A stretch of DNA of 64,000 nucleotides from Jatrophihabitans sp. GAS493 (GTDB taxonomy: Bacteria; Actinomycetota; Actinomycetes; Mycobacteriales; Jatrophihabitantaceae). The stretch covers positions 1,674,001 through 1,738,000 of the forward strand of contig NZ_LT907982.1 of assembly GCF_900230215.1 (NCBI RefSeq), given 5' to 3'. The position numbers and the translations under genes are program-made. A model generated the notes under the pieces. That model saw only the letters and a list, made by a program, of their open reading frames with translations. It was not told where the DNA came from and ran no database searches. Positions 46,722-63,807 of the stretch are shown here, piece after piece; position 1 is the stretch's first letter, and every line of letters starts with the position of its first letter.

Positions 46722-49529
46722 ATGAACTTCTTCCTTTATCTGATCCTCGGGCTCGGTGCCGGTGCGGTCTACGGGCTGCTGGCACAGGGGATCATCGTCA
46801 TCTACCGCACGTCCCGGGTGCTCAACTTTGCCCAGGGCGCGATCGCGATGGCCAGTGCGTACACCTTCGTGAACCTCTCCATCACCCACGGCTGGCCGTC
46901 ATGGGTGGCCCTGATCGTCACGACGTTGCTTGCGGCCGTGCTCGGTGTGTTGGTCCAGCTGCTGGTGATGGGCCCGATGCATCAGGCCTCGCCGCTGGCT
47001 CGGGTCTCGGCCACGCTCGGTCTGCTGATCACGCTGGAGTCGGCGATCTCGCTGCACTACGGGACGGAGGGCACGATCGTTCGGAGCTTCCTGCCCAATG
47101 GGGCGGTCCACCTCTGGCATGATGCCAGTGTCGGCGCGGACCGGCTCATTCTGGTCGGCATCGGCGCCGTCGTGACCGCGATCCTCTGGCTGGTCTACCA
47201 CCTCACCCAGTTGGGCCGTTTGACCACGGGTGTATCGCAGAACCCGGTCGCGGTAGCCAGCCTCGGTCACTCACCGGCGCGGTTGGCCATGGTGAACTGG
47301 GCGATCGGCTGCGGCCTCGCCGGATTCTGTGGTTGCCTGGTCGTACCGTTGACCGGCCTGCAGATCTCCACCCTGACGATGCTCGTCGTCCCTGCCCTGG
47401 CGGCAGCCATCGCCGGCAACTTCGTGTCGTTCCCCGGTACTTTTGCGGCGGGTCTGGCCATCGGTGCCGCCGAGTCGATTGTGCAGAACTACGTGCACAC
47501 GCCGGGCTGGCCGGAGGCTGTGCCCTTCATCGCGATCGTCGTGCTCTGTGTCGTACGCGGAGGCAGCCTGCCGACCCGTGACACGATGTTGGAGCGGCTG
47601 CCCAAGGTCGGCAGCGCCCGATTCGGGCGCACCGGCATAGTGACCGTGTGCGTCCTTGCCTTCGTGTTCGTCAACGTCGGTCCGCAGTCCTGGATCGCTC
47701 CGGTGGAGACTACGGCGCTGATCGCGCTGATCGGACTCTCGATCGTGGTGGTGATGGGCTTTGCGGGTCAACTCAACCTCGCCCCGTACGCGCTCGCCGG
47801 GATCTCCTGCCTGCTGGCCGCTCACGTCGCCGAATCGTGGGGTTGGTCCCTGGTGCCATGCCTGCTCGTCGGCGCTGTGGCGGCGGTGCCGGTCGGACTG
47901 CTCGTCGCCATGCCCGCCCTACGCACCCGCGGCGCCAATCTCGCCGCGGCCACCCTGGGCCTCGGCGTGGTCGTTCAGGACCTGATCTTCAGCAACTCCG
48001 ACTACACCGGTGGCTTCACCGGAATGACCACCGGAACGCCGAACTTGTTCGGATGGTCGCTGGACTCGGATCTGCACCCGGCCCGCTATGCCAGCCTGGT
48101 GATCGTCGTACTGCTGGTGGCGGGCATCGCCGTCGTCAACATCCGACGCAGCTCCTCAGGGCGCCGGCTTCTGGCCGTACGCGGGAACGAGCGAGCCGCC
48201 GCGTCGCTTGGCATAAGTGTGTGGGGTGCCAAGCTCTACGCGTTCTCGGTCTCGGCCTTTCTCGCCGGCGCCTACGGTGTGCTGAGCCAGTTCCAGACCG
48301 GCACCGTCACGTTCCTGACGTTCTCTCCGCTGGCGTCGCTGCTGCTGGTGGGCTCCGTTGTCCTCGGCGCGGTCGGCTATGCCAGCGGCGCCTTTGTCGC
48401 GGGGATCATCGCCACCGGCGGGATCCTCTCGAACTGGCTCGGTTTCACCCAAATCGACAAGTACCTGCCGCTGATCAGCGGGCTGGCACTCATGCTGACC
48501 CTCGTGCTGAACCCGAGCGGACTCGTGCCGGGGACAATCGACAGTGTCCGGATGCTGCTTCGCAAGCTGATCAAAACGGCACCCGCCGAGGTGGGCGAGG
48601 CCGCGCACACACCTGAGTCGGTGGAGGTGCCGGAACCGACCGACGCCACTGCTCCGGCGGTCGGCGCAGACGCTGTCGCGGGCCGCCGCACCAGTATCAC
48701 CAGGCTCCGCCAGACCGATCGGGTAGAGCCCCTGCCGCTGGAGGTAACCGGCTTATCCGTGTCCTTCGGCCGGGTGCAGGCGGTTCGGGACGTGGCGCTG
48801 ACTGTCCAGCCGGGCGAGGTGCTCGGTCTCATCGGCCCGAATGGCGCCGGCAAGACCACGGCAATCGATGCCATCACCGGGTTCGTGAACGCCAGTGGCT
48901 CGATCAAGCTCGGCGGGGTGGAACTGGCCGGCTACTCAGCTTATAAGCGAGCGGCCCGTGGCCTGTCGCGATCCTTCCAAGCGATCGAACTCTTCGACGA
49001 CCTCAGCCTGGCCGAGAACCTCTCGGTCGGCGCCGAGGGCGCCGCGGGTATCAGCTACCTGCGCGACATCCTCGCGCCCCGCGGTAGCAAGCTATCGCCC
49101 ACCACTGAGGCTGCGGTCGAGATGTTCGGCCTCGCGCCCTATCTCAACCAGCTGCCGGGCGACCTGCCCTTCGCCGTCCGGCGTCTGGCCGGCATCGCGC
49201 GCTGTGTCGCGAAGTCGCCGTCTGTGGTGCTGCTGGACGAGCCGGCCGCGGGGCTCGGCCAGCACGAGCTGGGCGAGCTGGATGACCTGATCCGGCGTCT
49301 GGCCAAGGACATGGGCATGGGCGTCGTTCTCGTGGAGCATCACCTCGAGCTGGTGATGTCGGTATGTGATCGCATTCAGGTGCTGACCCTCGGGTCGACG
49401 CTGGCCGTAGGCACGCCCGCGGAGGTCTCCGCGAACGCGGAGGTGCGGGTTGCCTACATGGGCGAAGCCACCGAGGCCACCGACGCGCTCGATGCCGATC
49501 TGGCAGAGGCACTCTCCGGAACAGAGTGA
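46722..49529 (+). CDS. fused LivH-LivM-LivG: two permeases and one ATPase in one chain
   Basis: 935-aa ABC transporter fusion. Residues 1 to about 290 are a LivH-type permease (NFAQGAIAMASAYTFVNL, LLITLESAISLHYG); about 300-610 a LivM-type permease (GFAGQLNLAPYALAGISCLL, NERAAASLGISVWGAKLYAF); then a Pro/Glu/Thr-rich linker of about 80 residues; then a LivG-type ATPase. Walker A is GPNGAGKTTAID (about 704-715), Walker B VVLLDEPAAGL, switch His VLVEHHLELV. The ABC signature is degenerate: QLPGDLPFAVRRLAGIARC where LivG has a NLAYGQQR- or LSGGQ-like segment. LivM-LivG fusions are known; the triple fusion is less usual. No substrate-binding protein gene is in the window, so it must be elsewhere if it exists. 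Confidence 0.92.
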   Translation: MNFFLYLILGLGAGAVYGLLAQGIIVIYRTSRVLNFAQGAIAMASAYTFVNLSITHGWPSWVALIVTTLLAAVLGVLVQLLVMGPMHQASPLARVSATLGLLITLESAISLHYGTEGTIVRSFLPNGAVHLWHDASVGADRLILVGIGAVVTAILWLVYHLTQLGRLTTGVSQNPVAVASLGHSPARLAMVNWAIGCGLAGFCGCLVVPLTGLQISTLTMLVVPALAAAIAGNFVSFPGTFAAGLAIGAAESIVQNYVHTPGWPEAVPFIAIVVLCVVRGGSLPTRDTMLERLPKVGSARFGRTGIVTVCVLAFVFVNVGPQSWIAPVETTALIALIGLSIVVVMGFAGQLNLAPYALAGISCLLAAHVAESWGWSLVPCLLVGAVAAVPVGLLVAMPALRTRGANLAAATLGLGVVVQDLIFSNSDYTGGFTGMTTGTPNLFGWSLDSDLHPARYASLVIVVLLVAGIAVVNIRRSSSGRRLLAVRGNERAAASLGISVWGAKLYAFSVSAFLAGAYGVLSQFQTGTVTFLTFSPLASLLLVGSVVLGAVGYASGAFVAGIIATGGILSNWLGFTQIDKYLPLISGLALMLTLVLNPSGLVPGTIDSVRMLLRKLIKTAPAEVGEAAHTPESVEVPEPTDATAPAVGADAVAGRRTSITRLRQTDRVEPLPLEVTGLSVSFGRVQAVRDVALTVQPGEVLGLIGPNGAGKTTAIDAITGFVNASGSIKLGGVELAGYSAYKRAARGLSRSFQAIELFDDLSLAENLSVGAEGAAGISYLRDILAPRGSKLSPTTEAAVEMFGLAPYLNQLPGDLPFAVRRLAGIARCVAKSPSVVLLDEPAAGLGQHELGELDDLIRRLAKDMGMGVVLVEHHLELVMSVCDRIQVLTLGSTLAVGTPAEVSANAEVRVAYMGEATEATDALDADLAEALSGTE

Positions 49530-50759: not shown

Positions 50760-51902
50760 ATGCGGGATGCGGTCATCGTCGGCGCGGTTCGGACGCCGAT
50801 CGGCAGGCGGAACGGTGCGTATGCCAACGTACATCCGATCGACCTGTCGGCCTACGTGCTTCAGGGTCTGGTGAATAAGACTGGGATCGACCCGGCCGTC
50901 ATCGACGACGTCATCTGGGGCTGCGTGCAGCAGGTGGGCGGTCAGTCGCTGAATCCGGCTCGGCTGGCGGCGCTGGCTGCCGGCTTCCCCGAGACCGTGC
51001 CCGGCACCTCCGTGGACCGGCAGTGCGGCTCGTCGCAGCAATCGGTGCACTTCGCCGCGGCAGCGGTTGTCTCCGGCCAGTGCGACGTCGTGGTCGCCGG
51101 TGGCGTCGAGAGCATGACGATGGTCCCCATGGGCGCGTCGATGGCCGACCCGGCCTATGGCGCGCCGTACGGTCCGCTGTTCAGCCAGCGCTACCCCGAT
51201 GAGCCAAACCAGGGCGTCGGCGCCGAGATGGTAGCGGAAAAGTGGGGTTTTTCGCGCAGTCAGCTCGACGAATACGCTGTACAGTCCCACGAGCGCACGG
51301 CCGCTGCGATCGACGCCGGCGCCTTTACCGAGCAGTATGTCGAGATCCCCGGTACCGGCCTGACCGTCGACCAGGGATTGCGTCGCGGGACATCCCTTGA
51401 CGTCCTCGCCGGTCTAAAACCCGCATTCAAATCTGACGGTGTCATCCACGCCGGCAATTCCTCGCAGATCTCCGACGGCTCCGGCGCGCTCCTGATCACA
51501 ACCAGCGAGAAGGCGGCCGAACTCGGGCTGAAGCCACTGGTCCGCCTGCACACGTTCGCGGTCGCCGGCAGTGATCCGGTCATCATGCTCACCGGCCCGA
51601 TTCCGGCGACGGCCAAGGCGCTGGCCCGTTCCGGCCTGTCGATCAACGAGATCGGTGCATTCGAGATCAACGAGGCCTTCGCACCGGTCCCGCTGGCGTG
51701 GCAGGTCGAGACCGGCGCCGACCCGAAGAACCTCAACCCGCTGGGCGGTGCCATCGCGGTCGGTCACCCCTTGGGTGGTTCAGGGGCAATCCTGATGACC
51801 CGACTGGTACACAACATGGTCGACAACGGCATCCAGTACGGCCTGCAGAGCATGTGCGAGGGTGGCGGCATGGCCAACGCAACCATCCTCGAACTGCTAT
51901 GA
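50760..51902 (+). CDS. acetyl-CoA acyltransferase (thiolase)
   Basis: 380-aa thiolase. Nucleophile in VDRQCGSSQQSVHF (C89), GHPLGGSG His (about 336) and Cys in MCEGGGMANAT (about 366) are present, so the catalytic set is complete. VESMTMVPMG and EINEAFAPVPLAW are family motifs. It differs clearly from the thiolase at 37487 and probably serves another chain or ring type. GAGGTGA precedes ATG 50760. Forms an operon with the SDR at 51916. In a ketone-carboxylation route it would cleave the 3-ketoacyl-CoA. Confidence 0.9.
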   Translation: MRDAVIVGAVRTPIGRRNGAYANVHPIDLSAYVLQGLVNKTGIDPAVIDDVIWGCVQQVGGQSLNPARLAALAAGFPETVPGTSVDRQCGSSQQSVHFAAAAVVSGQCDVVVAGGVESMTMVPMGASMADPAYGAPYGPLFSQRYPDEPNQGVGAEMVAEKWGFSRSQLDEYAVQSHERTAAAIDAGAFTEQYVEIPGTGLTVDQGLRRGTSLDVLAGLKPAFKSDGVIHAGNSSQISDGSGALLITTSEKAAELGLKPLVRLHTFAVAGSDPVIMLTGPIPATAKALARSGLSINEIGAFEINEAFAPVPLAWQVETGADPKNLNPLGGAIAVGHPLGGSGAILMTRLVHNMVDNGIQYGLQSMCEGGGMANATILELL

Positions 51903-52802: not shown

Positions 52803-53825
52803 TCACCGGCCGCTCTGCATCCCGATCGGTAGGCCGTCGACGAGCTGGTCGAGCACTTCGACGATGCCCAGGCCGTGCCGGCCGTCGTTGGTCTCGAAGT
52901 CGTACGCGGCGTAGCCGATCCGGGTGACCTGGGTGCTGCCGTCCTCGAGCTCCTTAAGGTGGCGCAGCGGGACGAATCGCTCCGGCTTGCGGGCGACAGC
53001 GGTGAGTGCCAGCTCGCCGCCGGGACCGTCGACGTCGCTGATCACCGAACGAATATAACCATCATCGGTCCAGTCGATGGTCAGGCCACGCAGGATCGCC
53101 TCGTACACCTGGTCGTCCTTCGTGATGGCGGCTCGCCGGGTCAGGCTGCCGTCACGGCGGCCCACCTCCAGCGTCATGATCTGCGTACCGTCGTCGAGGA
53201 TCGCGGTGATCCAGCGGTGGAAGAGGGGCCCGGTCCAGTCGCGCGGTCCCCACGAGTGATCGCGGAGCCCACCGCCCTGCACCTCGAACACCTGATCTCC
53301 GATCAGGATCCGGCCGTCGAGCCGACCGAACTGCTCGTAATGACCGAGGGCGAGCGTCTCCTCCAGGAAGTTGCCGGGGTCGTCGCCGTTCGTCCCGAAC
53401 GAGGCGCCGTCGGCGACGTTGGCCAGGTCGATCCGGACCTTCTGCACGGGTGCGTCGGCCAGTGCCTGACGCGGGCTGCTCAGCACCCGCGGGTCGGTGA
53501 ACACCGACATGGTGCCGTCGAAGGTGAGCTGTTGCCGGCGGTGCGGCTCCAGCACCTCGATGCTGATCGAGCCGACGGCGAGCTGCTCCGACCCGAACGT
53601 CCGCGTGCGTTCGAAGGACAGCAGTGTGTCGCCTGACGGCAGGAACACCAGCCCAGTAGCCTGGCCGGACGGTTGGTTGGGTTGCACGGCGACGCGCAGC
53701 CAACCGACCACACCGGAGTCCAACGACGCGAAGTTGTAGTACGTACTCTCGTTGTACTGCGGATCGCTGTCCGGGACGTGCCGGCACTCATGCTCCGGCT
53801 TGATCGTTTCGATGAACATGGACAT
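52803..53825 (-). CDS. AttH/lipocalin-like protein of unknown function (DUF7064-type)
   Basis: 340-aa protein without signal peptide. The motif GLRDHSWGPRDWTGPLFHRW in the middle is characteristic of a lipocalin-like family often found in terpenoid, steroid and alkane catabolic clusters. The N-terminal half has ESTYYNFASLDSGVVGWLRV and the C-terminal part YAAYDFETNDGRHGLGIVEV. No enzyme activity can be assigned; binding or isomerising a hydrophobic substrate is possible. ATG 53825 lies one base after the HyuA stop (53827-53829) and GAGG is just upstream, so it is the third gene of the HyuB-HyuA operon. The gene at the right window edge seems to start a related protein. Confidence 0.72.
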   Translation of the reverse strand: MSMFIETIKPEHECRHVPDSDPQYNESTYYNFASLDSGVVGWLRVAVQPNQPSGQATGLVFLPSGDTLLSFERTRTFGSEQLAVGSISIEVLEPHRRQQLTFDGTMSVFTDPRVLSSPRQALADAPVQKVRIDLANVADGASFGTNGDDPGNFLEETLALGHYEQFGRLDGRILIGDQVFEVQGGGLRDHSWGPRDWTGPLFHRWITAILDDGTQIMTLEVGRRDGSLTRRAAITKDDQVYEAILRGLTIDWTDDGYIRSVISDVDGPGGELALTAVARKPERFVPLRHLKELEDGSTQVTRIGYAAYDFETNDGRHGLGIVEVLDQLVDGLPIGMQSGR

Positions 53826-53826
53826 G

Positions 53827-55977
53827 TCAGGCCTCGATCACAATGCTGTTCCAGGCGTCGACGATCGCACTCTGGCCTTGCCGAAGCACCAGGGTCGTGT
53901 CCACGAACTCCACGATCGCCGGTCCGGTGACCCTCGCGCCGCTGGTGATGTTCTGTCCTGAGTACACCGGTGTGGCGATAGGCGTGCTCCCCAGCTCGTA
54001 CCACAGCACGTCGCGGTGCGAGCTCGGCTGGAGGTCGTAGGCCTCGCCGGCGCCGGCGGCGGTGAGTTCGAACGAGGTGATCTGCGCCCGCGCGCTGACC
54101 CGCAGAGACGTGATGACAAATCCGGCAGCGGCGTAGCCGCTCCCCTCACCGAAGAGCCGCTCGTACTCCTGCTCGAAACTGGCCGTCAAGGAAGCAACCT
54201 CTGCCGGCCCGTACGTCCCCCCGGGCGCGGGCACCCGCAGCTCGTTGACCTGTAGCGAGTAGCGCATCTCGACGAAGCGGTCCAGAGTCACTCCCGCCTC
54301 GCGCATTGCCGGCGGGACGGCGGCCCAGACCTGTTCCTCGAGCTGCTTCCATGCCCCGTTGAGCAACTGGGCGTCGAACGGTGATGCGAAGCTGACCGGT
54401 GCATCCTGGACGAGCATCGCGTCGGCGGCACCGACACCGAACGCCGACCAGCCGGCCGCCAGGTCGCCCAGCGGCATGACCACGGTACGGATGCCAAGCT
54501 GGCGCGCCACCGCCGGGCAGTGCACCGCGCCGGCGCCCCCGTAGGCGTACATGACACACGAACGCGGGTCGTATCCCTGGTGCACGCTCGACAGACGGAT
54601 CGCGTCGGCCATCTGGTCGTCGACGATGCGAGCCGCCGCGGCGGCGGTCTGGGCTGCGGTAAATCCGAGCGGCCGGCCGGCCCGCTCCAGCGCGTCGTGC
54701 GCAGCCTTGCCGCCCAGCGCCAAGTCTCCGCCGAGGAAGTATTCGGGGTTGAGGTAGCCGAGAACCAGGTCGGCGTCGGTCACTGTCGCTTCCGTGCCAC
54801 CGCGCAGATACGCCGCCGGTCCCGGCACCGCACCGGCACTTCGTGGGCCCACCCGCAGGCTGCGGGTCTGCTCGTCGTAGGCCACGATGCTGCCACCACC
54901 GGCGCCGACCGAGCGGACGTCGAGAGTGGGCACGAAGTATTCGAATTGGCCGTATCGCGTCGTGGAGCGCGTCACTGGCAGGCCGCCGCGGATGATTCCG
55001 ACGTCGAACGTCGTACCACCCATGTCTCCGGTGAGGACGTTGACTGACGCCAGGTCCGTCTCGCCGGCCGAGGCCCGGGCTAGCTTTCCGGCGCCGATCA
55101 GGCCGGCGACCGGCCCGGACCCGATGGTGAGCAGCGGCAGCGTGCGGGCGCGGGCGGCTTCGATGAGGCCCCCGGTGCAGCTCATGATCGACAGTGCGCC
55201 TCCATAGCCGAGGCCCGCGAGCTGCTCACCGAGTTGGCCGAGGTACGCACTGGTCACTGGTCCGATCATTGCGTTGATGAGCGTGGCGATTGCTCGCTGG
55301 TACTCGCCTTGCCGGGGCACGACCTCCGAGCTCACCGAGACGAACGCGTCCGGCGCCTCCTCGCGAACGATGTTGGCCAGCATCCGCTCGTGGATGTCGT
55401 TCGCCGTCGACCACAGCAGGGTGATGGCGAAAGCCTCCACGCCGTCGGCGGCCAGTCGCCGGACGGTGGCGCGGGCGGCCTGCTCGTCGAGGCCGACGAT
55501 GATGCGGCCGTCCGTCGCGATGCGCTCGGTGATCTCCGCGACCAGCGACTTGGGAACCAGTGGCTCCGGTTTGGTCTGTCCGGCCAGATGCGCGATCTCG
55601 CGCGGGTCCAGGCCCGCAAGCCGGTTGCCGGCCTGCATGAAGAACACGGTGTCGCGATGCCCGGCGGTGGTCAACAGCGCGACTTTCGCGGTGCGCTTTT
55701 CGACCAGGGCGTTGGTGCCGACAGTGCAGCCGTGGACGATCGAGCCGGCCCGGGCGATCAAGTCGGCCGCGGTGAGGTCCAGGCGACGCGCGGCCGCGGC
55801 GATTGAGTCGATGAAGCCGCGGTGGAAATCCGGAGGCGTGGAGGACGCCTTGCCGATCGTGATGCGCCCCCGACTGTCGGTGACTACGCAGTCGGTGAAG
55901 GTCCCACCGATGTCGACGCCGATGACATATTCGCCACCCTGCTCTTTAACATTCCCAACGTTCTCGTTCGCGGTCAC
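53827..55977 (-). CDS. hydantoinase/oxoprolinase/acetone-carboxylase beta-like subunit (HyuA family)
   Basis: 716-aa ATP-binding subunit of the HyuA/AcxA family. YVIGVDIGGTFTDCVV is the N-terminal actin-like phosphate loop; HGCTVGTNALVEKRTAKVAL, SGPVAGLIGAGKLA, LTGDMGGTTFDVG (second phosphate loop), GAGGGSIVAYDE and MYAYGGAGAVHCPAVARQLG follow in the family order. The HyuA partner activates a carbonyl or bicarbonate by phosphorylation. GTG 55977 overlaps the HyuB stop by four bases; longer readings lie inside HyuB. Neighbouring HyuB carries a zinc-ribbon tail, which favours a carboxylase over hydantoinase or oxoprolinase. Confidence 0.87.
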   Translation of the reverse strand: MTANENVGNVKEQGGEYVIGVDIGGTFTDCVVTDSRGRITIGKASSTPPDFHRGFIDSIAAAARRLDLTAADLIARAGSIVHGCTVGTNALVEKRTAKVALLTTAGHRDTVFFMQAGNRLAGLDPREIAHLAGQTKPEPLVPKSLVAEITERIATDGRIIVGLDEQAARATVRRLAADGVEAFAITLLWSTANDIHERMLANIVREEAPDAFVSVSSEVVPRQGEYQRAIATLINAMIGPVTSAYLGQLGEQLAGLGYGGALSIMSCTGGLIEAARARTLPLLTIGSGPVAGLIGAGKLARASAGETDLASVNVLTGDMGGTTFDVGIIRGGLPVTRSTTRYGQFEYFVPTLDVRSVGAGGGSIVAYDEQTRSLRVGPRSAGAVPGPAAYLRGGTEATVTDADLVLGYLNPEYFLGGDLALGGKAAHDALERAGRPLGFTAAQTAAAAARIVDDQMADAIRLSSVHQGYDPRSCVMYAYGGAGAVHCPAVARQLGIRTVVMPLGDLAAGWSAFGVGAADAMLVQDAPVSFASPFDAQLLNGAWKQLEEQVWAAVPPAMREAGVTLDRFVEMRYSLQVNELRVPAPGGTYGPAEVASLTASFEQEYERLFGEGSGYAAAGFVITSLRVSARAQITSFELTAAGAGEAYDLQPSSHRDVLWYELGSTPIATPVYSGQNITSGARVTGPAIVEFVDTTLVLRQGQSAIVDAWNSIVIEA

Positions 55978-58328
55978 AGGAACCGTACCTCCCCAAGCAC
56001 CGGCTCGCTCGCGCGCGCTATTTCGGTTGTCAGCAGTGTGTGGCATCCAGGACAGTAGTACCGCCGGAAGACCATATCCTCGTCCAGGAACACCCGCGGA
56101 TCGCTGACGCCGGGCAGTACATCGACCCCGGTCTGGCAGATCTGCAGGCCGAACTTGTAGTTTGCGCGGTAATCACTGAGCACCGTGTCGCAGCGGGCGC
56201 AGGCGAGCACGCGGTGGGCGCCCTCGTCGCGCGCCACGACGTACTCCTGTACCGCCCGCGGATCCTCTCCCGTGGCGGCCGAAGACAGCGGCTCGGCCGG
56301 TACACCGAAGAACTCCGGCACCGCCGGCCAGCCCCGCCGCTCGTCGAGCAGGTGAATGCGCCGAGCCGCGGTCGCGGCCGCGTCCAACTCGCCATCGGCC
56401 GCCACTACTACGCCGTAGAGCAGGTGCGCGGCTTCGCTCGAGACATATCCACGCTGGACGTCGCTGACCACTCGCTCAGGTTCGCGATCGAGCGGGTCGC
56501 CGTAGCCGCCGCCGCCGGATACCACGAGTAGCAGCACATCGTCGGAGGCCAGCGCGGTGCCGTTGGACTTCGGACGAAGCCGCAGCGTCTCGGCAACCGA
56601 CAGCTCGTCGACCGTACGCGGCGCCTGGCCGCCCGCGAGCAGTTCGGGCAGGTTCGTCGACTTCAACACCTTGTAGTGTGCGGTCGGTGACGGGTGGCCG
56701 CCGGAGACGCCCATCGCCTGGTTCGTCGTGACGCCCTGGCCGCCCGCGTTGGTGATGATCTCCACGTAGCCGGCGCGGTAGGTCATGAGGGCGACCTCCA
56801 TTCCCACCCCGCCGCGCCAGCGCCCGGCGCCTCCGGTGTCCTCGGCCTCCTTGCGATAAAGGATCAGCAGCGGGTCGCGGGCTTCGGTGTCCTCTACGTT
56901 CGGCATCCGGATCAACGGGTCGTACGACGCGCCGGCTGTTTCGATCCCATCGGCATACGACCGTGACCCGCCACCGAAACCACATGCGGCCGTTACCGCG
57001 GTACCGAAGAAGTTGCCGCGGTCATCCAGCCCGGCCAATACGGTGAGCGGGCAATCCGGACCGGCGACGGCGATGTCGGCTTTGAGTTCCGGATCGGTCG
57101 CCAGCAGTCGCGCGAACATGTTTTGCAGGCGTTCGTAGCTGCTGCTGATGTTCAGCACGCCGCCGCTGACCGCGGCCGGGTAGTCGCAACAGCTCAACAG
57201 GCCGGGAATCGGGCGGAAATCGATCTGCCGCTGAGCCCCGCCGATGGAGAAGGTGTGCTCGTAGAGGATCGTCTGTGCAGTGACGCCGAGGACGATTCCG
57301 GCGAAGTTCATGTAGGTGAAGCCGTTTGGCCCATCGCTTTGGGCCTCGGTACCGATGTTGTCGATAGTCAGCCTGGAGCCGCGCTTGGTGATGTTGAACT
57401 GGACCCGGTGGGTGGTCCGGTCGCCGGGCAGCTTCTCGTCGAAGTACAGGACATCGCTCAGCGTGCAGTCAGGCAGACGCTCGAGCTTCTCGGCAAAGGC
57501 CGCCTGGGCGTTGTCCAGGATTCGGCGCATCGCCGACTTGACGACCGGTGCGCCGAACTCGGCGCAGGTCTCTTGAAGCCGCCGCGCGGCGAACCGGCAA
57601 CCGGCCAGCTGGGCCCGCAGGTCGAGTGCCACCATGTCCGGCAGTCGGGAGTGCCGGCGGTACATCTGTTCCAGATCCGTGCGCATCACGCCGCGCTCGA
57701 CAAGCTTGAACGGCGTGAACAGCACCGGGTCGCTGTGCACGTCCGGAGCATTCTGCGGCCAACCACCGGGGACGATACCGCCGAGGTCGTACTGTTGAGC
57801 CGCGTTGGACACCCAGGCGAACAGCTCGCCGTCGACGAAGACCGGCATCGTGATGCAGACGTCCATCTGGTGCGACGCCCCGATCCACGGGTCGTTGCCG
57901 ACGAAGATGTCGCCCTCGTGGATTCCGGGCGACTCACTGAACCGCTCCATGATGTAGCGCGCAACCAGCGGCGAACCGGTGTTGAGGTACTGGATGAAGG
58001 GCGCGCTCATCACGATCTCGGCGTCTTCGGTGAGCACCGACATGTTGAAGTCAAGAGCCTGGAAGATCGGCGAGCCGGACATCCGCGACAGCGTGTCACC
58101 GTGCGCGATGTTGATCGTCCACAGCCGGTTGCGCAGCACCTCGAAGGTCACGGGGTCGAGATCGACGTCCGTGTTGGTGCTGAGCTTCAGCGCCGGCGAT
58201 ACGCGGCTGAGCCAGTCGTCGGCGGGGCGGTAGCTGTGCTGGATGCCGTCCCAGACGATGTCTTCATAGCCTGGGTAGGCTTCGTCGGTGCCCCCGTAAG
58301 CATTACCGCTGGAAATATCGACAGACAC
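55974..58328 (-). CDS. HyuB/acetone-carboxylase alpha-like subunit fused to a gamma-like zinc-ribbon domain
   Basis: 784-aa protein, longer than ordinary HyuB (about 520-600). The main part has the HyuB metal-site text: LDFNMSVLTEDAEIVM, HEGDIFVGNDPWIGASHQMD, FNITKRGSRLTIDNIGTEAQ and RWRGGVGMEVALMTYRAGY. The last 75 residues hold CARC (C710, C713) and CPGC (C759, C762) around DYRANYKFGLQ, like the zinc-binding gamma subunit of acetone carboxylases. This suggests an alpha-gamma fusion of an ATP-dependent ketone carboxylase. GTG 58328 is chosen for GGAGG four bases upstream. First gene of a three-gene operon; dyad 15 is upstream. Confidence 0.85.
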   Translation of the reverse strand: MSVDISSGNAYGGTDEAYPGYEDIVWDGIQHSYRPADDWLSRVSPALKLSTNTDVDLDPVTFEVLRNRLWTINIAHGDTLSRMSGSPIFQALDFNMSVLTEDAEIVMSAPFIQYLNTGSPLVARYIMERFSESPGIHEGDIFVGNDPWIGASHQMDVCITMPVFVDGELFAWVSNAAQQYDLGGIVPGGWPQNAPDVHSDPVLFTPFKLVERGVMRTDLEQMYRRHSRLPDMVALDLRAQLAGCRFAARRLQETCAEFGAPVVKSAMRRILDNAQAAFAEKLERLPDCTLSDVLYFDEKLPGDRTTHRVQFNITKRGSRLTIDNIGTEAQSDGPNGFTYMNFAGIVLGVTAQTILYEHTFSIGGAQRQIDFRPIPGLLSCCDYPAAVSGGVLNISSSYERLQNMFARLLATDPELKADIAVAGPDCPLTVLAGLDDRGNFFGTAVTAACGFGGGSRSYADGIETAGASYDPLIRMPNVEDTEARDPLLILYRKEAEDTGGAGRWRGGVGMEVALMTYRAGYVEIITNAGGQGVTTNQAMGVSGGHPSPTAHYKVLKSTNLPELLAGGQAPRTVDELSVAETLRLRPKSNGTALASDDVLLLVVSGGGGYGDPLDREPERVVSDVQRGYVSSEAAHLLYGVVVAADGELDAAATAARRIHLLDERRGWPAVPEFFGVPAEPLSSAATGEDPRAVQEYVVARDEGAHRVLACARCDTVLSDYRANYKFGLQICQTGVDVLPGVSDPRVFLDEDMVFRRYYCPGCHTLLTTEIARASEPVLGEVRFL

Positions 58329-58373
58329 AGTGCCTCCAAGTGCGGCGTCTCGCAAAGAAGGGCGCCGTTTATG

Positions 58374-58447: not shown

Positions 58448-59887
58448 TTAGCTGTAGTACACGGACTGCAACTGCTGGAAGCCCGCCAGTCCCTCCGGGC
58501 CCAACTCTCGGCCGATGCCGCTCTGCTTGACGCCGCCGAACGGCGCGAACCAGTCGATGTTGTAGTAGTTTACGCCGACCGATCCGGTCCGGATCCGATT
58601 GGCTACGGCGCGGGCGCGTTCGGGGTCCGCACTCCATACGCTGCCGCCCAGGCCGTACTCCGAGTCGTTGGCGATCCGGATCGCGTCGTCGTCGCCGTCG
58701 TAGGCGATCACTGACAGCACCGGGCCGAAGATCTCTTCACGGGCGATCGTGGCGTCGTTCGACACGTCGGCGAACACGGTCGGCTCGACGTACCAGCCCT
58801 TGTCGAGTCCTGCGGGGCGCCCGCCGCCAACGATCAGCCGAGCCTCGGTTCTGCCCGCGGCGATGTAGCCTTCGACGCGTTCCCGCTGGCGCTGGCTCAC
58901 CAGCGGGCCAAGCGCGGTTGCTGGATCGAACGGGTCGCCCACCGGCATCGCGGACGCCAGCGCAGCGAATGCGCCCACGACCTCGTCGTAGCGGTTGCGC
59001 GGTGCGAGGATCCGCGTGCCGAGGATGCAGGTCTGGCCGCTATTGACCAATGTGCACGCGAACAGCTTCTCCATCTCGGTGGACAGGTCGGCGTCATCAA
59101 GGACGATCACCGCGGACTTGCCGCCGAGTTCCAGGGTCACCGGGCGGAGCATTCGGCCGCACGTCTCGCCGATGGTGCGCCCGGCTCGGGTGGAGCCTGT
59201 GAAGGCCACCTTGTCGACGTCGGGGTGCTCGACGATGCGCCGGCCGGTGTCGGGTCCTCCGGTCACCAGGTTCACCACGCCCGGCGGTAGTCCTGCCTCC
59301 GCCGCGGCCTCGGCCATGAGGTAGGCGTCGAGGATCGTCTCCGGCGCCGGCTTCAGCACCACGGTATTGCCGGCCGCTAGCGCCGGTGCGAGCTTGAAGA
59401 ACGTGAGGGTCTGCGGAAAGTTCCACGGGATGATGGCGCCGATGACGCCGATCGGGACGCGGCGCACCACTGTCTTGCCGCCGGTGTAGGAGACGCGTTC
59501 CTCTTCGACGGGGGCCGAGCGTGCGAGCCCAGCGTAGTAGCGCAGCAGTCCCGCCGGTGCGACGGCTTCCGACAGGGATGCGATCATCGTCGGCATCCCC
59601 ATCTGCAGCGTGACGGCTCGCGCGGTCTGATCCTTGCGCTTGTCGATCGCGTCGGCGAAGCGCTCCAGTGCGTCGGCCCGGCGGGACGGCTCCCAGGTGG
59701 ACCACCCGCTGGGGTCGTCGAACGCGCGGCGCGCCGCTGCGACCGCGGCATCCACATCGTCGGCTGATCCGTCTGCGGCGGTGGCGACGACCTCCTCGGT
59801 CGAGGCCGAGATGACCTGGAAACGACCAGTTCCCTTGGCCGGTGCCCATGCTCCATCGATGAACATGCTGTCTTCGTGCTGAGTCAT
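58448..59887 (-). CDS. aldehyde dehydrogenase (NAD(P)-dependent)
   Basis: 479-aa ALDH superfamily enzyme. IPWNFPQTLTFFKLAPALAAG, FTGSTRAGRTIGE (cofactor loop), LELGGKSAVIVLDDAD with the general-base Glu, NSGQTCILGTR with the nucleophile Cys, and EEIFGPVLSVIAYDGDD are all present; the ending is FGGVKQSGIGRELGPEGLAG. It oxidises an aldehyde to an acid, so it could deliver substrates to the nearby ligase. ATG 59887 is preferred over 59893 because AGAGGAG is then six bases away instead of adjoining. Promoter TTGACG-N18-TAGGAT and dyad 16 lie upstream. Confidence 0.92.
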   Translation of the reverse strand: MTQHEDSMFIDGAWAPAKGTGRFQVISASTEEVVATAADGSADDVDAAVAAARRAFDDPSGWSTWEPSRRADALERFADAIDKRKDQTARAVTLQMGMPTMIASLSEAVAPAGLLRYYAGLARSAPVEEERVSYTGGKTVVRRVPIGVIGAIIPWNFPQTLTFFKLAPALAAGNTVVLKPAPETILDAYLMAEAAAEAGLPPGVVNLVTGGPDTGRRIVEHPDVDKVAFTGSTRAGRTIGETCGRMLRPVTLELGGKSAVIVLDDADLSTEMEKLFACTLVNSGQTCILGTRILAPRNRYDEVVGAFAALASAMPVGDPFDPATALGPLVSQRQRERVEGYIAAGRTEARLIVGGGRPAGLDKGWYVEPTVFADVSNDATIAREEIFGPVLSVIAYDGDDDAIRIANDSEYGLGGSVWSADPERARAVANRIRTGSVGVNYYNIDWFAPFGGVKQSGIGRELGPEGLAGFQQLQSVYYS

Positions 59888-59943
59888 CGCCATCTCCTCT
59901 GACCGGACCGGTGCCCTTTATGGTGAGCCGTCGCCGACTCGCG

Positions 59944-62256: not shown

Positions 62257-63807
62257 ATGTATCCCGGAACCTTCGCCAAGACGACCCCCGACCACCCGGC
62301 GATCATCATGGCGACGTCCGGTCAGACGATTACCTACGCCGAGCTCGACCGGCGCTCGATGCGGCTCGCGCAGCTTCTCTACGACCGGGGTCTGCGTCGC
62401 GGCGACCGGGTAGCCGTCCTGGCCGAGAACCATCCCCGCTATTTCGAGGTGTTCTGGGCCGCGGTGCGCAGCGGGCTATACCTCGTCGCCGTGAATCGCC
62501 ATCTGGCCCTTGAGGAGGCCAACTACATCGTCCGCAACTCGGGTGCGTCGGCGTTCGTCTCGACGGCGGCACTGGCCGAGACCGCAAGTCGCATGCTGCT
62601 CGAGCTCGACGCCTGCCCGACGCGGCTGATGATCGATGGTGTCGTCGCCGGCTTCGAGCCGTACGAGCAGGCCATCGCGGCGTACCCGGCGCAGCCGCTG
62701 ATCGAGCAGTGGCGTGGCGACTTCCTCCTTTACTCCTCGGGCACAACCGGACGGCCCAAGGGTGTGATGCGGGCGCTGCCGGAGACCCGGGTCGACACGA
62801 CGCCCGGCATCGTTTCGCCGATGGAAAAGCACGTACTCGGCATGGACGCGAGCACCATCTACCTCAGCCCGGCACCGCTCTATCACGCAGCTCCGCTCGG
62901 TTGGTGCAGTGGCGTCCATGAACTCGGCGGCACGGCGATCGTGATGGAGCACTTCGACGCCGAGCAGTACCTGGCGACCGTGGAGAAGTACCGCGTCACC
63001 CACTCGCAGGTGGTACCGACGATGTTCGTGCGGATGCTCAAGCTGGCAGAGAGCGCTCGCCGTCGCTACGACTTGTCGAGCCTTCAGCAGGTCATCCATG
63101 CGGCCGCCCCGTGCCCGCCCGAGCTGAAGCGGCAGATGATCGACTGGCTCGGCCCGATCGTGTCCGAGTACTACTCCTCGACGGAGGGCAACGGGTTCAC
63201 GTTCATCACCGCGCAGGAGTGGCTGGCTCACCCGGGGTCGGTGGGCCGACCGCTGCTGGGCGAGCCGCACATCTGCGACGACCTCGGCGTGGAGTTGCCG
63301 CCTGGACAATTGGGCACCCTGTACTTCAACCGCCCCGACCTGACGTTCGAGTACTTCGGCGACGTCGACAAGACGGCGTCCACCCGACACCCGGTCAACC
63401 CGGAGTGGACCACCCTTGGCGACATCGGCTACCTCGACGAGGAAGGTTATCTGTACCTCACCGACCGCAAGGCGTTCATGATCATCTCCGGTGGGGTGAA
63501 CATCTACCCGGCCGAGATCGAATCGTGCTTGATCACCCACCCCGCGGTCGCTGACGTCGCGGTGTTCGGCCTGCCCAATCCCGAGATGGGCGAGTCCGTC
63601 CACGCGGCGGTGCAGCTCGAACCCGGATACGAGCCGTCAGAAGATCTGAGTACGGCGCTGCGCGCATTCGCGCACGAGAACCTCGCCGGCTACAAGGTGC
63701 CTCGAACACTCGACTTCCGCGACGAGCTGCCGCGGCTCCCCACCGGCAAGCTGGCCAAGGGACGGCTGCGCGACGAGTATCTGACCGCGAACATCGGGGC
63801 CGTATGA
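62257..63807 (+). CDS. AMP-forming acyl-CoA ligase, FadD4-like
   Basis: 516-aa ANL ligase with the short N-terminus MYPGTFAKTTPDHPAI typical of a FadD4-like group. A3 LLYSSGTTGRPKGVMRA, A5 SEYYSSTEGNGFT, A7 WTTLGDIGYLDEEG, A8 DRKAFMIISGGVNIYPAEIE, A10 LPRLPTGKLAKGRLR. GGGAG lies upstream of ATG 62257. It follows the LLM gene by 18 bases and overlaps the next gene. In a ketone-carboxylation route it could activate the beta-keto acid formed by the HyuAB-type enzyme. Confidence 0.88.
   Translation: MYPGTFAKTTPDHPAIIMATSGQTITYAELDRRSMRLAQLLYDRGLRRGDRVAVLAENHPRYFEVFWAAVRSGLYLVAVNRHLALEEANYIVRNSGASAFVSTAALAETASRMLLELDACPTRLMIDGVVAGFEPYEQAIAAYPAQPLIEQWRGDFLLYSSGTTGRPKGVMRALPETRVDTTPGIVSPMEKHVLGMDASTIYLSPAPLYHAAPLGWCSGVHELGGTAIVMEHFDAEQYLATVEKYRVTHSQVVPTMFVRMLKLAESARRRYDLSSLQQVIHAAAPCPPELKRQMIDWLGPIVSEYYSSTEGNGFTFITAQEWLAHPGSVGRPLLGEPHICDDLGVELPPGQLGTLYFNRPDLTFEYFGDVDKTASTRHPVNPEWTTLGDIGYLDEEGYLYLTDRKAFMIISGGVNIYPAEIESCLITHPAVADVAVFGLPNPEMGESVHAAVQLEPGYEPSEDLSTALRAFAHENLAGYKVPRTLDFRDELPRLPTGKLAKGRLRDEYLTANIGAV

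What the first reader, a model, noticed from the sequence alone, without database searches (positions are those of the whole stretch)
55974..58328. HyuB fused to an acetone-carboxylase gamma-like zinc ribbon
The C-terminal 75 residues have two CxxC pairs around a DYRANYKFG segment, absent from ordinary HyuB/oxoprolinase. Acetone and acetophenone carboxylases use alpha, beta and a small zinc-binding gamma subunit; here alpha and gamma appear as one chain next to a beta-like HyuA.
Basis: partly seen in the sequence, partly recalled or inferred. Interest (0 to 1): 0.62.

Follow-up and report, generated by a model that had tools for sequence, protein, structure and literature searches.

The report
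Carboxylase-like enzyme with fused zinc subunit
An actinobacterium carries an ATP-driven enzyme of the kind labelled only as a hydantoinase, whose large subunit has the small zinc subunit of acetone and acetophenone carboxylases built onto its end, which suggests an unstudied branch of enzymes that may add bicarbonate to ketones; no activity has been shown.

Summary
The last ~85 residues of this HyuB are homologous to the zinc-binding gamma subunit of acetone (Acx) and acetophenone (Apc) carboxylase. Pfam Acetone_carb_G is above its cut-off. A profile of fused and split relatives finds only the Apc and Acx gamma chains among solved structures before E = 0.015. The tail folded alone matches those chains far above anything else.
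The fusion is not unique: it recurs in Actinomycetota, haloarchaea and one alphaproteobacterium. Three haloarchaeal plasmids carry a homologous enzyme with gamma as a separate gene.
In trees of both large subunits, all sampled gamma-less hydantoinase-type proteins form one clade; all sampled gamma-bearing ones, Apc and Acx included, lie outside it. The window's enzyme lies outside the Apc and the Acx groups.
The genome has one HyuA and no second ATPase subunit, so the composition is Acx-like. Carboxylation is the best inference but untested. Cautions: neighbouring-gene statistics are weak, and one catalytic metal ligand (His) is Gln here and in two orthologues.
Verdict: a new variant of a known kind.

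The parts
55974..58328 (-). HyuB-gamma fusion protein (beta + gamma in PMC5214803 naming), 784 aa from a GTG start with GGAGG upstream; the open frame begins at 58355
56493..58157 (-). Hydantoinase_B domain, residues 67-621 of the 793-aa ORF; metal-site residues D102, H162, D165 and Q187 (His in the other relatives except two)
57795..57797 (-). codon of Q187, at the position of the fourth metal ligand (His124 of CapB, His148 of Apc, His175 of Acx)
   Evidence: ligand identities from PMC8453981
55989..56243 (-). gamma domain (Acetone_carb_G), residues 705-789, with C719, C722, C768, C771
53827..55977 (-). HyuA, ASKHA-type ATPase subunit (alpha), 716 aa from a GTG that overlaps the HyuB-gamma stop codon (GTGA); the listed ORF starts at 56046
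52803..53825 (-). DUF7065/DUF7064 protein, directly downstream of HyuA, same strand; a DUF7065 gene also lies near the orthologous pair of M. branderi
58448..59893 (-). aldehyde dehydrogenase, upstream, same strand; possible first gene of the operon
50760..51902 (+). thiolase on the other strand; a thiolase 63% identical to it lies near the Nakamurella lactea pair
62257..63807 (+). acyl-CoA synthetase (AMP-binding), closest to the FadD4-type models but below their cut-offs

Best explanation
[quoted passage not shown] Most likely it is a biotin-independent, ATP-dependent carboxylase. HyuA (one ASKHA ATPase site, no alpha' in the genome) would phosphorylate the enol of a ketone-like substrate and bicarbonate in turn. 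The activated intermediates would pass along an internal channel to the metal site in HyuB, where they join to a beta-keto acid. The gamma domain is a structural zinc ribbon that wraps the HyuB domain and is not catalytic. A CoA ligase and a thiolase of the surrounding catabolic island could then cleave the product. Shown here: homology and predicted fold of the tail, gene pair and overlap, single HyuA, ATP motifs, position in the trees. Inferred: carboxylation, the sequential use of one ATP site, the channel, zinc binding, the downstream steps. The substrate is unknown.
For: Gamma homology: Pfam cut-off met; HMM of 15 stand-alone gammas E = 1e-13; profile A4 (27 rows, 23 fused and 4 stand-alone) hits 5l9w_C at 1.2e-15, 5m45_C at 2.3e-11 and 5svb_C at 5.6e-11, next row 0.015; the tail model (pLDDT 77.8) has Apc and Acx gamma chains as its top five Foldseek rows, probability 1.00, next E 0.39, and Z 9.2, 2.7 A over 89 residues for 5l9w_C against 4.1 for the best unrelated row. 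Split forms HyuA-HyuB-gamma in three haloarchaeal plasmids, gamma annotated 'acetone carboxylase subunit gamma'. On the HyuB tree, built without the tail, presence of gamma changes once over 108 tips (shuffles at least 27), 3 times if two decayed tails are called absent. On the HyuA tree the gamma-less set with caprolactamase and N-methylhydantoinase is one clade, local support 0.99. PMC5214803 (parts 1-3 of 5 read) states that gamma is found in Apc and Acx and lacking in hydantoinases. HyuB scores higher with ApcD (190 bits) than with CapB (151), both far below the equivalog cut-offs. HyuA keeps the ATP motifs. The locus lies in an island with CoA ligases, acyl-CoA dehydrogenases and two thiolases.
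Against: No member of this gamma-bearing group is known to me to have a measured activity. The metal ligand His is Gln in the window, M. branderi and N. lactea; in caprolactamase H124A is inactive (<0.015%; PMC8453981). Neighbour statistics are weak: thiolase in 5 of 38 gamma-bearing against 0 of 48 gamma-less loci, p = 0.014 uncorrected over 16 families, and 4 of 21 against 0 of 15, p = 0.12, after dereplication; CoA ligases, SDRs and acyl-CoA dehydrogenases show no significant enrichment. HyuA scores higher with caprolactamase CapA (451 bits) than with ApcC (313). PMC5214803 says gamma is far from the active site, so gamma alone does not prove carboxylation.
Confidence: 0.6

Rival explanations
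1. An ATP-dependent amidohydrolase (lactam, hydantoin or imide opening) that kept or acquired a gamma domain as a structural clamp.
For: HyuA is closest by NCBIfam score to CapA (451 bits); the first metal ligand is Asp as in Apc and Hyd, not Glu as in Acx; caprolactamase also needs bicarbonate (PMC8453981), so the chemistries are close.
Against: The sampled gamma-less hydantoinase-type proteins, with CapAB and N-methylhydantoinase, form a separate clade in the trees.
Confidence: 0.25
2. In the window's own sub-clade the H to Q change at the metal site has altered or weakened catalysis; the protein binds another metal, catalyses a different last step, or is losing function.
For: Q187 in the window, M. 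branderi and N. lactea, His in three sister Mycobacterium proteins; H124A kills caprolactamase.
Against: The reading frame is intact and about 70% identical between the window, M. branderi and N. lactea, the Gln is shared by these three genomes, Gln can ligate metals (general knowledge), and eight gamma-less sequences have Gln at another His ligand.
Confidence: 0.12
3. A complete Apc-type enzyme whose alpha' subunit is encoded elsewhere in the genome.
For: Profile and structure scores of the tail are as good for Apc gamma as for Acx gamma.
Against: Only one Hydantoinase_A match in the genome; the same Pfam model detects the alpha'-type protein of an Apc-like gene row in another genome of the same family at 194 bits (L023).
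Confidence: 0.02
4. An unrelated zinc ribbon on an ordinary hydantoinase.
For: Two CxxC pairs are common in zinc ribbons (general knowledge).
Against:: gamma chains of Apc and Acx stand alone at the top; other ribbons are at or near chance.
Confidence: 0.01

Closest known systems
Acetone carboxylase (Acx; PDB 5m45, 5svb, 5svc)
   Same: alpha, beta and gamma parts, a single ATPase subunit type, gamma ribbon with four Cys, metal site in HyuB
   Different: gamma fused to HyuB with a short linker, gene order HyuB-gamma then HyuA, first metal ligand Asp instead of Glu, outside the Acx group in both trees, Gln for the fourth ligand. Some actinobacterial Acx-type proteins also have gamma fused, with a longer linker
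Acetophenone carboxylase (Apc; PDB 5l9w)
   Same: gamma ribbon (best profile and Z scores), Asp as first metal ligand, HyuA and HyuB parts
   Different: no alpha' subunit, gamma fused, outside the Apc group of the trees
Caprolactamase / ATP-dependent hydantoinase (CapAB 6yra, N-methylhydantoinase 7hk5)
   Same: HyuA-HyuB pair, ATP motifs, metal site
   Different: these lack gamma and form another clade (N-methylhydantoinase was placed on the HyuA tree only)
Haloarchaeal HyuA-HyuB-'acetone carboxylase subunit gamma' (Haladaptatus, Haloterrigena, Natronosalvus plasmids)
   Same: same three parts; the HyuB of Haladaptatus and Haloterrigena falls near the window's clade (39-41% identical)
   Different: gamma is a separate gene of 93-99 aa; order A-B-gamma; I know of no measured function

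Membership tests
Pfam Acetone_carb_G (gamma subunit) | profile score above the curated cut-off | tested here: met
   26.8 bits, cut-off 21
Pfam Acetone_carb_G (gamma subunit) | four zinc cysteines in two CxxC pairs | tested here: met
   C719, C722, C768, C771 invariant in six aligned sequences; zinc binding itself not testable here
Pfam Acetone_carb_G (gamma subunit) | gamma fold | tested here: met
   predicted tail: Z 9.2, 2.7 A over 89 residues to 5l9w_C; Z 8.4-8.6 to Acx gamma
Acetone carboxylase | alpha, beta and gamma parts present, no alpha' | tested here: met
   (gamma as a fused domain)
Acetone carboxylase | first metal ligand Glu (Glu89) | tested here: not met
   Asp102
Acetone carboxylase | groups with Acx in trees of both large subunits | tested here: not met
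Acetone carboxylase | gene order acxA-acxB-acxC (PMC5214803) | tested here: not met
   order HyuB-gamma, HyuA
Acetone carboxylase | ATP- and bicarbonate-dependent acetone carboxylation | not testable with these tools
   needs purified protein
Acetophenone carboxylase | second ATPase subunit alpha' | tested here: not met
   single Hydantoinase_A match in the genome; the model detects an alpha'-type protein elsewhere
Acetophenone carboxylase | groups with Apc in trees | tested here: not met
Acetophenone carboxylase | epsilon subunit | not tested
   divergent and not always present (PMC5214803)
ATP-dependent hydantoinase/oxoprolinase/lactamase | no gamma subunit (PMC5214803) | tested here: not met
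   gamma domain present
ATP-dependent hydantoinase/oxoprolinase/lactamase | groups with CapAB (both trees) and N-methylhydantoinase (HyuA tree) | tested here: not met
Hydantoinase/ketone carboxylase superfamily | HyuA with ATP motifs DxGGTxTD, DxGGT, GxxPGP | tested here: met
   D45-D52, D341-T345 and P408-P410 among invariant columns; motifs from PMC8453981
Hydantoinase/ketone carboxylase superfamily | metal tetrad Asp/Glu-His-Asp-His in HyuB | tested here: not met
   D102, H162, D165 kept; fourth position is Gln187. Placement in the superfamily rests on the HyuA and HyuB Pfam domains and the trees

The most novel reading that the evidence does not exclude
The gamma-bearing proteins outside Apc and Acx, fused or split, are one or more uncharacterised classes of biotin-independent, ATP-dependent carboxylases in actinobacteria and haloarchaea. 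They use a single ATPase subunit and act on larger, perhaps alicyclic or steroid-like, ketones. Gamma is then the marker that separates carboxylases from hydrolases throughout the superfamily, and the zinc in it is dispensable, since some lineages have lost the cysteines.
Probability: 0.4. Interest if true: 0.68.

Novelty: new variant of a known kind. Interest (0 to 1): 0.5.

Why it matters
PMC5214803 notes that only few enzymes of this superfamily are biochemically characterised. In the plasmid records I opened, fused proteins are filed as 'hydantoinase B/oxoprolinase family protein'. If gamma marks carboxylases, a simple domain check would re-annotate many of them as candidate bicarbonate-fixing catabolic enzymes. 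The fused form reduces the known multi-subunit ketone carboxylases to two chains, which would ease expression and structure work. The natural His/Gln difference between close orthologues gives a direct test of the metal site.

Tried and rejected
Rejected: unrelated zinc ribbon; Apc with a distant alpha'; HyuA-HyuB-gamma single-chain fusions suggested by open frames of 1467 aa (L021) and 1777 aa (L022), in which HyuA is read in another frame.

Led nowhere or weak: gene-neighbourhood statistics do not settle the function. The full-length HyuB-gamma model is poor (mean pLDDT 47.3, six sequences); its Foldseek rows are consistent but I do not rest on them. Two scans of viral contigs found no relative. 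Paper searches for the fusion (listings only) showed no description of it in the held library; most subscription journals are not held, so it may be in print elsewhere. PF08882 misses part of the fused family (L154, scanned in part, at 14.4 bits, and L170 without a match), so the counts are lower bounds.

Labels chosen by me: L161 and L168 were called 'none' by the HMM but have tails of about 100 residues that look like decayed gamma; both ways of counting are given. In one search they were counted as gamma-bearing. L022 counts as split because its gamma is read in another frame of a 74%-complete assembly. L020 (fused) sits near Apc/Acx on the HyuB tree and was grouped with them. Two duplicate copies of the N. 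lactea protein (L019, L168:3-881) were dropped before the HyuB tree. The gamma-bearing loci were partly chosen because they had gamma; the 60 loci were taken from the HyuB list without checking for gamma, though the last 20 and a few others were picked from its lower score band. Alignments and the trees were not repeated with another method; supports are FastTree local values and the trees were midpoint-rooted.

Full report
What is there. On the minus strand at 55974-58328 lies a HyuB protein of 784 aa (GTG start with GGAGG upstream; the open frame starts at 58355, 793 aa, whose numbering I use). Pfam finds Hydantoinase_B at 67-621 and Acetone_carb_G at 705-789, 26.8 bits against a cut-off of 21. 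HyuA (53827-55977) can begin with a GTG that overlaps the HyuB stop codon (GTGA), so the two are probably translated together. A DUF7065/7064 gene starts one base beyond the end of HyuA, and an aldehyde dehydrogenase gene precedes HyuB on the same strand. The genome holds one HyuB, one HyuA and one Acetone_carb_G match. It is in the same order as Nakamurella lactea (handle G118 and the named locus L027 share the contig length 364,481).

Is the tail a gamma subunit? Four lines agree. (a) The curated Pfam model. (b) An HMM of 15 stand-alone gamma proteins from other loci scores the window frame at 51.3 bits, E = 1e-13 among 16,326 ORFs; all its hits up to E = 10 were HyuB frames or gammas already found, and 2000 shuffles of the tail reached at most 11.2 bits. 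In the other direction, an HMM of 20 fused tails only finds the Apc- and Acx-type gammas outside HyuB frames at E = 3e-8 to 1e-19 and the three haloarchaeal ones at 7e-24 to 2e-25. (c) A profile of 23 fused and 4 stand-alone gammas (A4) finds in the PDB 5l9w_C, 5m45_C and 5svb_C at 1.2e-15 to 5.6e-11, then nothing before 0.015. (d) The tail folded alone (pLDDT 77.8) has the Acx and Apc gamma chains as its five best Foldseek rows (probability 1.00); VIA-align gives Z 9.2, 2.7 A, 89 residues for 5l9w_C and 8.4-8.6 for Acx gamma, the next row 4.1.

The fusion is recurrent. Orthologues with the tail, 68-70% identical, are in Mycobacterium sp. E796, E2479 and MBM, in Nakamurella lactea and on an M. 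branderi plasmid; a Solirubrobacterales MAG has one at 38%. Each has HyuA next to it. The window and the first five have the order HyuB-HyuA; one search counts this order in 6, and A-B in 31, of the 37 gamma-bearing loci outside the Apc/Acx group that have a HyuA. More distant fusions are in Halorientalis, Natrinema and Niveispirillum plasmids. In Haladaptatus, Haloterrigena and Natronosalvus plasmids the pair is followed by a separate gene of 93-99 aa, annotated 'acetone carboxylase subunit gamma' and confirmed by Pfam. This split-and-fused pattern argues that the tail works with this HyuB. In the order of the window the A4 profile finds gamma in 21 of 150 genomes, 26 places; HyuB is in 83 of 150. 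Of the 26 places, 18 lie in open frames of at least 700 aa; I fetched 17 of those, and in all 17 HyuB is in the same frame. In the phylum sample 22 of 396 genomes have gamma by either profile.

Trees. From the window and 103 loci I took 105 HyuB proteins and added three PDB chains, aligned without the tail: 35 fused, 20 with a separate gamma nearby, 50 without by the HMM. Of the 50, 48 form one clade with caprolactamase (local support 0.96); the other two (L161, L168) have decayed tails and sit among fused proteins. All gamma-bearing ones with Apc and Acx lie outside that clade. Presence of gamma needs one change over 108 tips with L161 and L168 counted as present (1000 shuffles: at least 27, mean 36), or three if they are scored absent. 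The HyuA tree (118 tips) gives the same split: gamma-less partners plus CapA and N-methylhydantoinase form one clade, support 0.99. The window is outside the Apc group and outside the Acx group in both. Fused, split and absent states change 7 or 8 times in all; Acx-type proteins of L102-L106 have their own fusion, with a longer linker. Deep branches of the gamma-bearing part are poorly supported, so I do not claim that the rest forms a single clade. The sample is mainly actinobacterial.

Active sites. HyuA keeps the phosphate and adenosine motifs (motifs from PMC8453981, passages seen). HyuB has D102, H162 and D165, but Q187 at the fourth ligand. Among 108 aligned rows the Gln occurs in three, the window, M. 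branderi and N. lactea; the other 105, with the sister Mycobacterium proteins, have His. In caprolactamase the Ala mutant of this His is inactive (<0.015% conversion; PMC8453981, passages). Gln may still hold a metal. This is the strongest sequence-level caution about the activity of this very protein. The first ligand is Asp as in Apc and hydantoinases; Acx has Glu.

Zinc. Some tails have lost cysteines but keep the rest: Rhodococcus opacus plasmid pCP105 (L064), L100 and L022, and Acx-type L104 and L105. This fits the view in PMC5214803 (parts 1-3 of 5 read) that the zinc of gamma is structural and far from the active site.

Mechanism. By analogy with acetone carboxylase (PMC5543143, passages): enol phosphate and carboxyphosphate are made in turn in HyuA, pass through a channel and join at the metal of HyuB. 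With no alpha', the two-site scheme of Apc cannot apply. None of these steps was tested here. In Apc, gamma is embraced by the C-terminal arm of the HyuB-type subunit, so attachment to that end is sterically plausible.

Context. The window from about 21.8 to 63.8 kb is a catabolic island; the proteins that I scanned there include five AMP-binding CoA ligases, five acyl-CoA dehydrogenase-type proteins, two thiolases, an enoyl-CoA hydratase, three SDRs and a branched-chain-type ABC transporter. This suits carboxylation, CoA activation and thiolysis as in acetophenone degradation (PMC5214803). However, tested over 38 gamma-bearing and 48 gamma-less loci, only thiolase (5 against 0, p = 0.014), MaoC (4 against 0, p = 0.035) and TetR (6 against 1, p = 0.041) differ at p < 0.05 among 16 families, uncorrected, and none after dereplication (21 and 15 loci). 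Context is suggestive only.

Naming. The annotated plasmid records that I opened call the fused proteins 'hydantoinase B/oxoprolinase family protein'. I found no paper on the fusion in the held library (search listings only). PMC5214803 distinguishes Hyd, Acx and Apc partly by the presence of gamma as a separate subunit; a fused class was not mentioned in the parts I read. PMC10865871 (passages) calls the gamma zinc of Acx apparently structural.

Verdict. Homology of the tail: near certain. Ketone-carboxylase-like enzyme: likely (0.6). Substrate: unknown. New variant of a known kind.

Noticed in passing
window 57795-57797 (Q187 of HyuB): A catalytic metal ligand that is His in 105 of 108 aligned rows is Gln in the window, M. 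branderi and N. lactea, but His in three sister Mycobacterium proteins.
   Followed up: partly
L102, L103, L104, L105, L106: Acx-type HyuB proteins of other Actinomycetota also carry gamma fused at the C-terminus through a longer linker; in L104 and L105 zinc cysteines are wholly or partly lost.
   Followed up: partly
L064 (R. opacus pCP105), L100, L022: Gamma-like tails without the four-cysteine site; in L064 and L022 an SDR and a CoA ligase are nearby.
   Followed up: partly
window 46722-49529: One 935-aa chain combines branched-chain-type permease domains (two stretches) and an ATPase domain, normally separate proteins.
   Followed up: no
window 21797-63807: Large catabolic island with five CoA ligases, acyl-CoA dehydrogenases including two tandem pairs, two thiolases, SDRs and luciferase-type oxidoreductases; its substrate is unknown.
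   Followed up: no
window 52803-53825; L060 9309-10301: A DUF7065 protein accompanies the HyuB-gamma/HyuA pair in the window and in M. branderi; phosphotransferase-type genes are nearby in both.
   Followed up: partly
L060 11569-12045: In M. branderi a '2,4'-dihydroxyacetophenone dioxygenase family' gene and several P450 genes flank the pair, perhaps a hint at an aromatic or cyclic ketone.
   Followed up: no
L107 (G316): An Apc-like gene row (alpha', gamma, alpha, then a HyuB) in another genome of the phylum.
   Followed up: no
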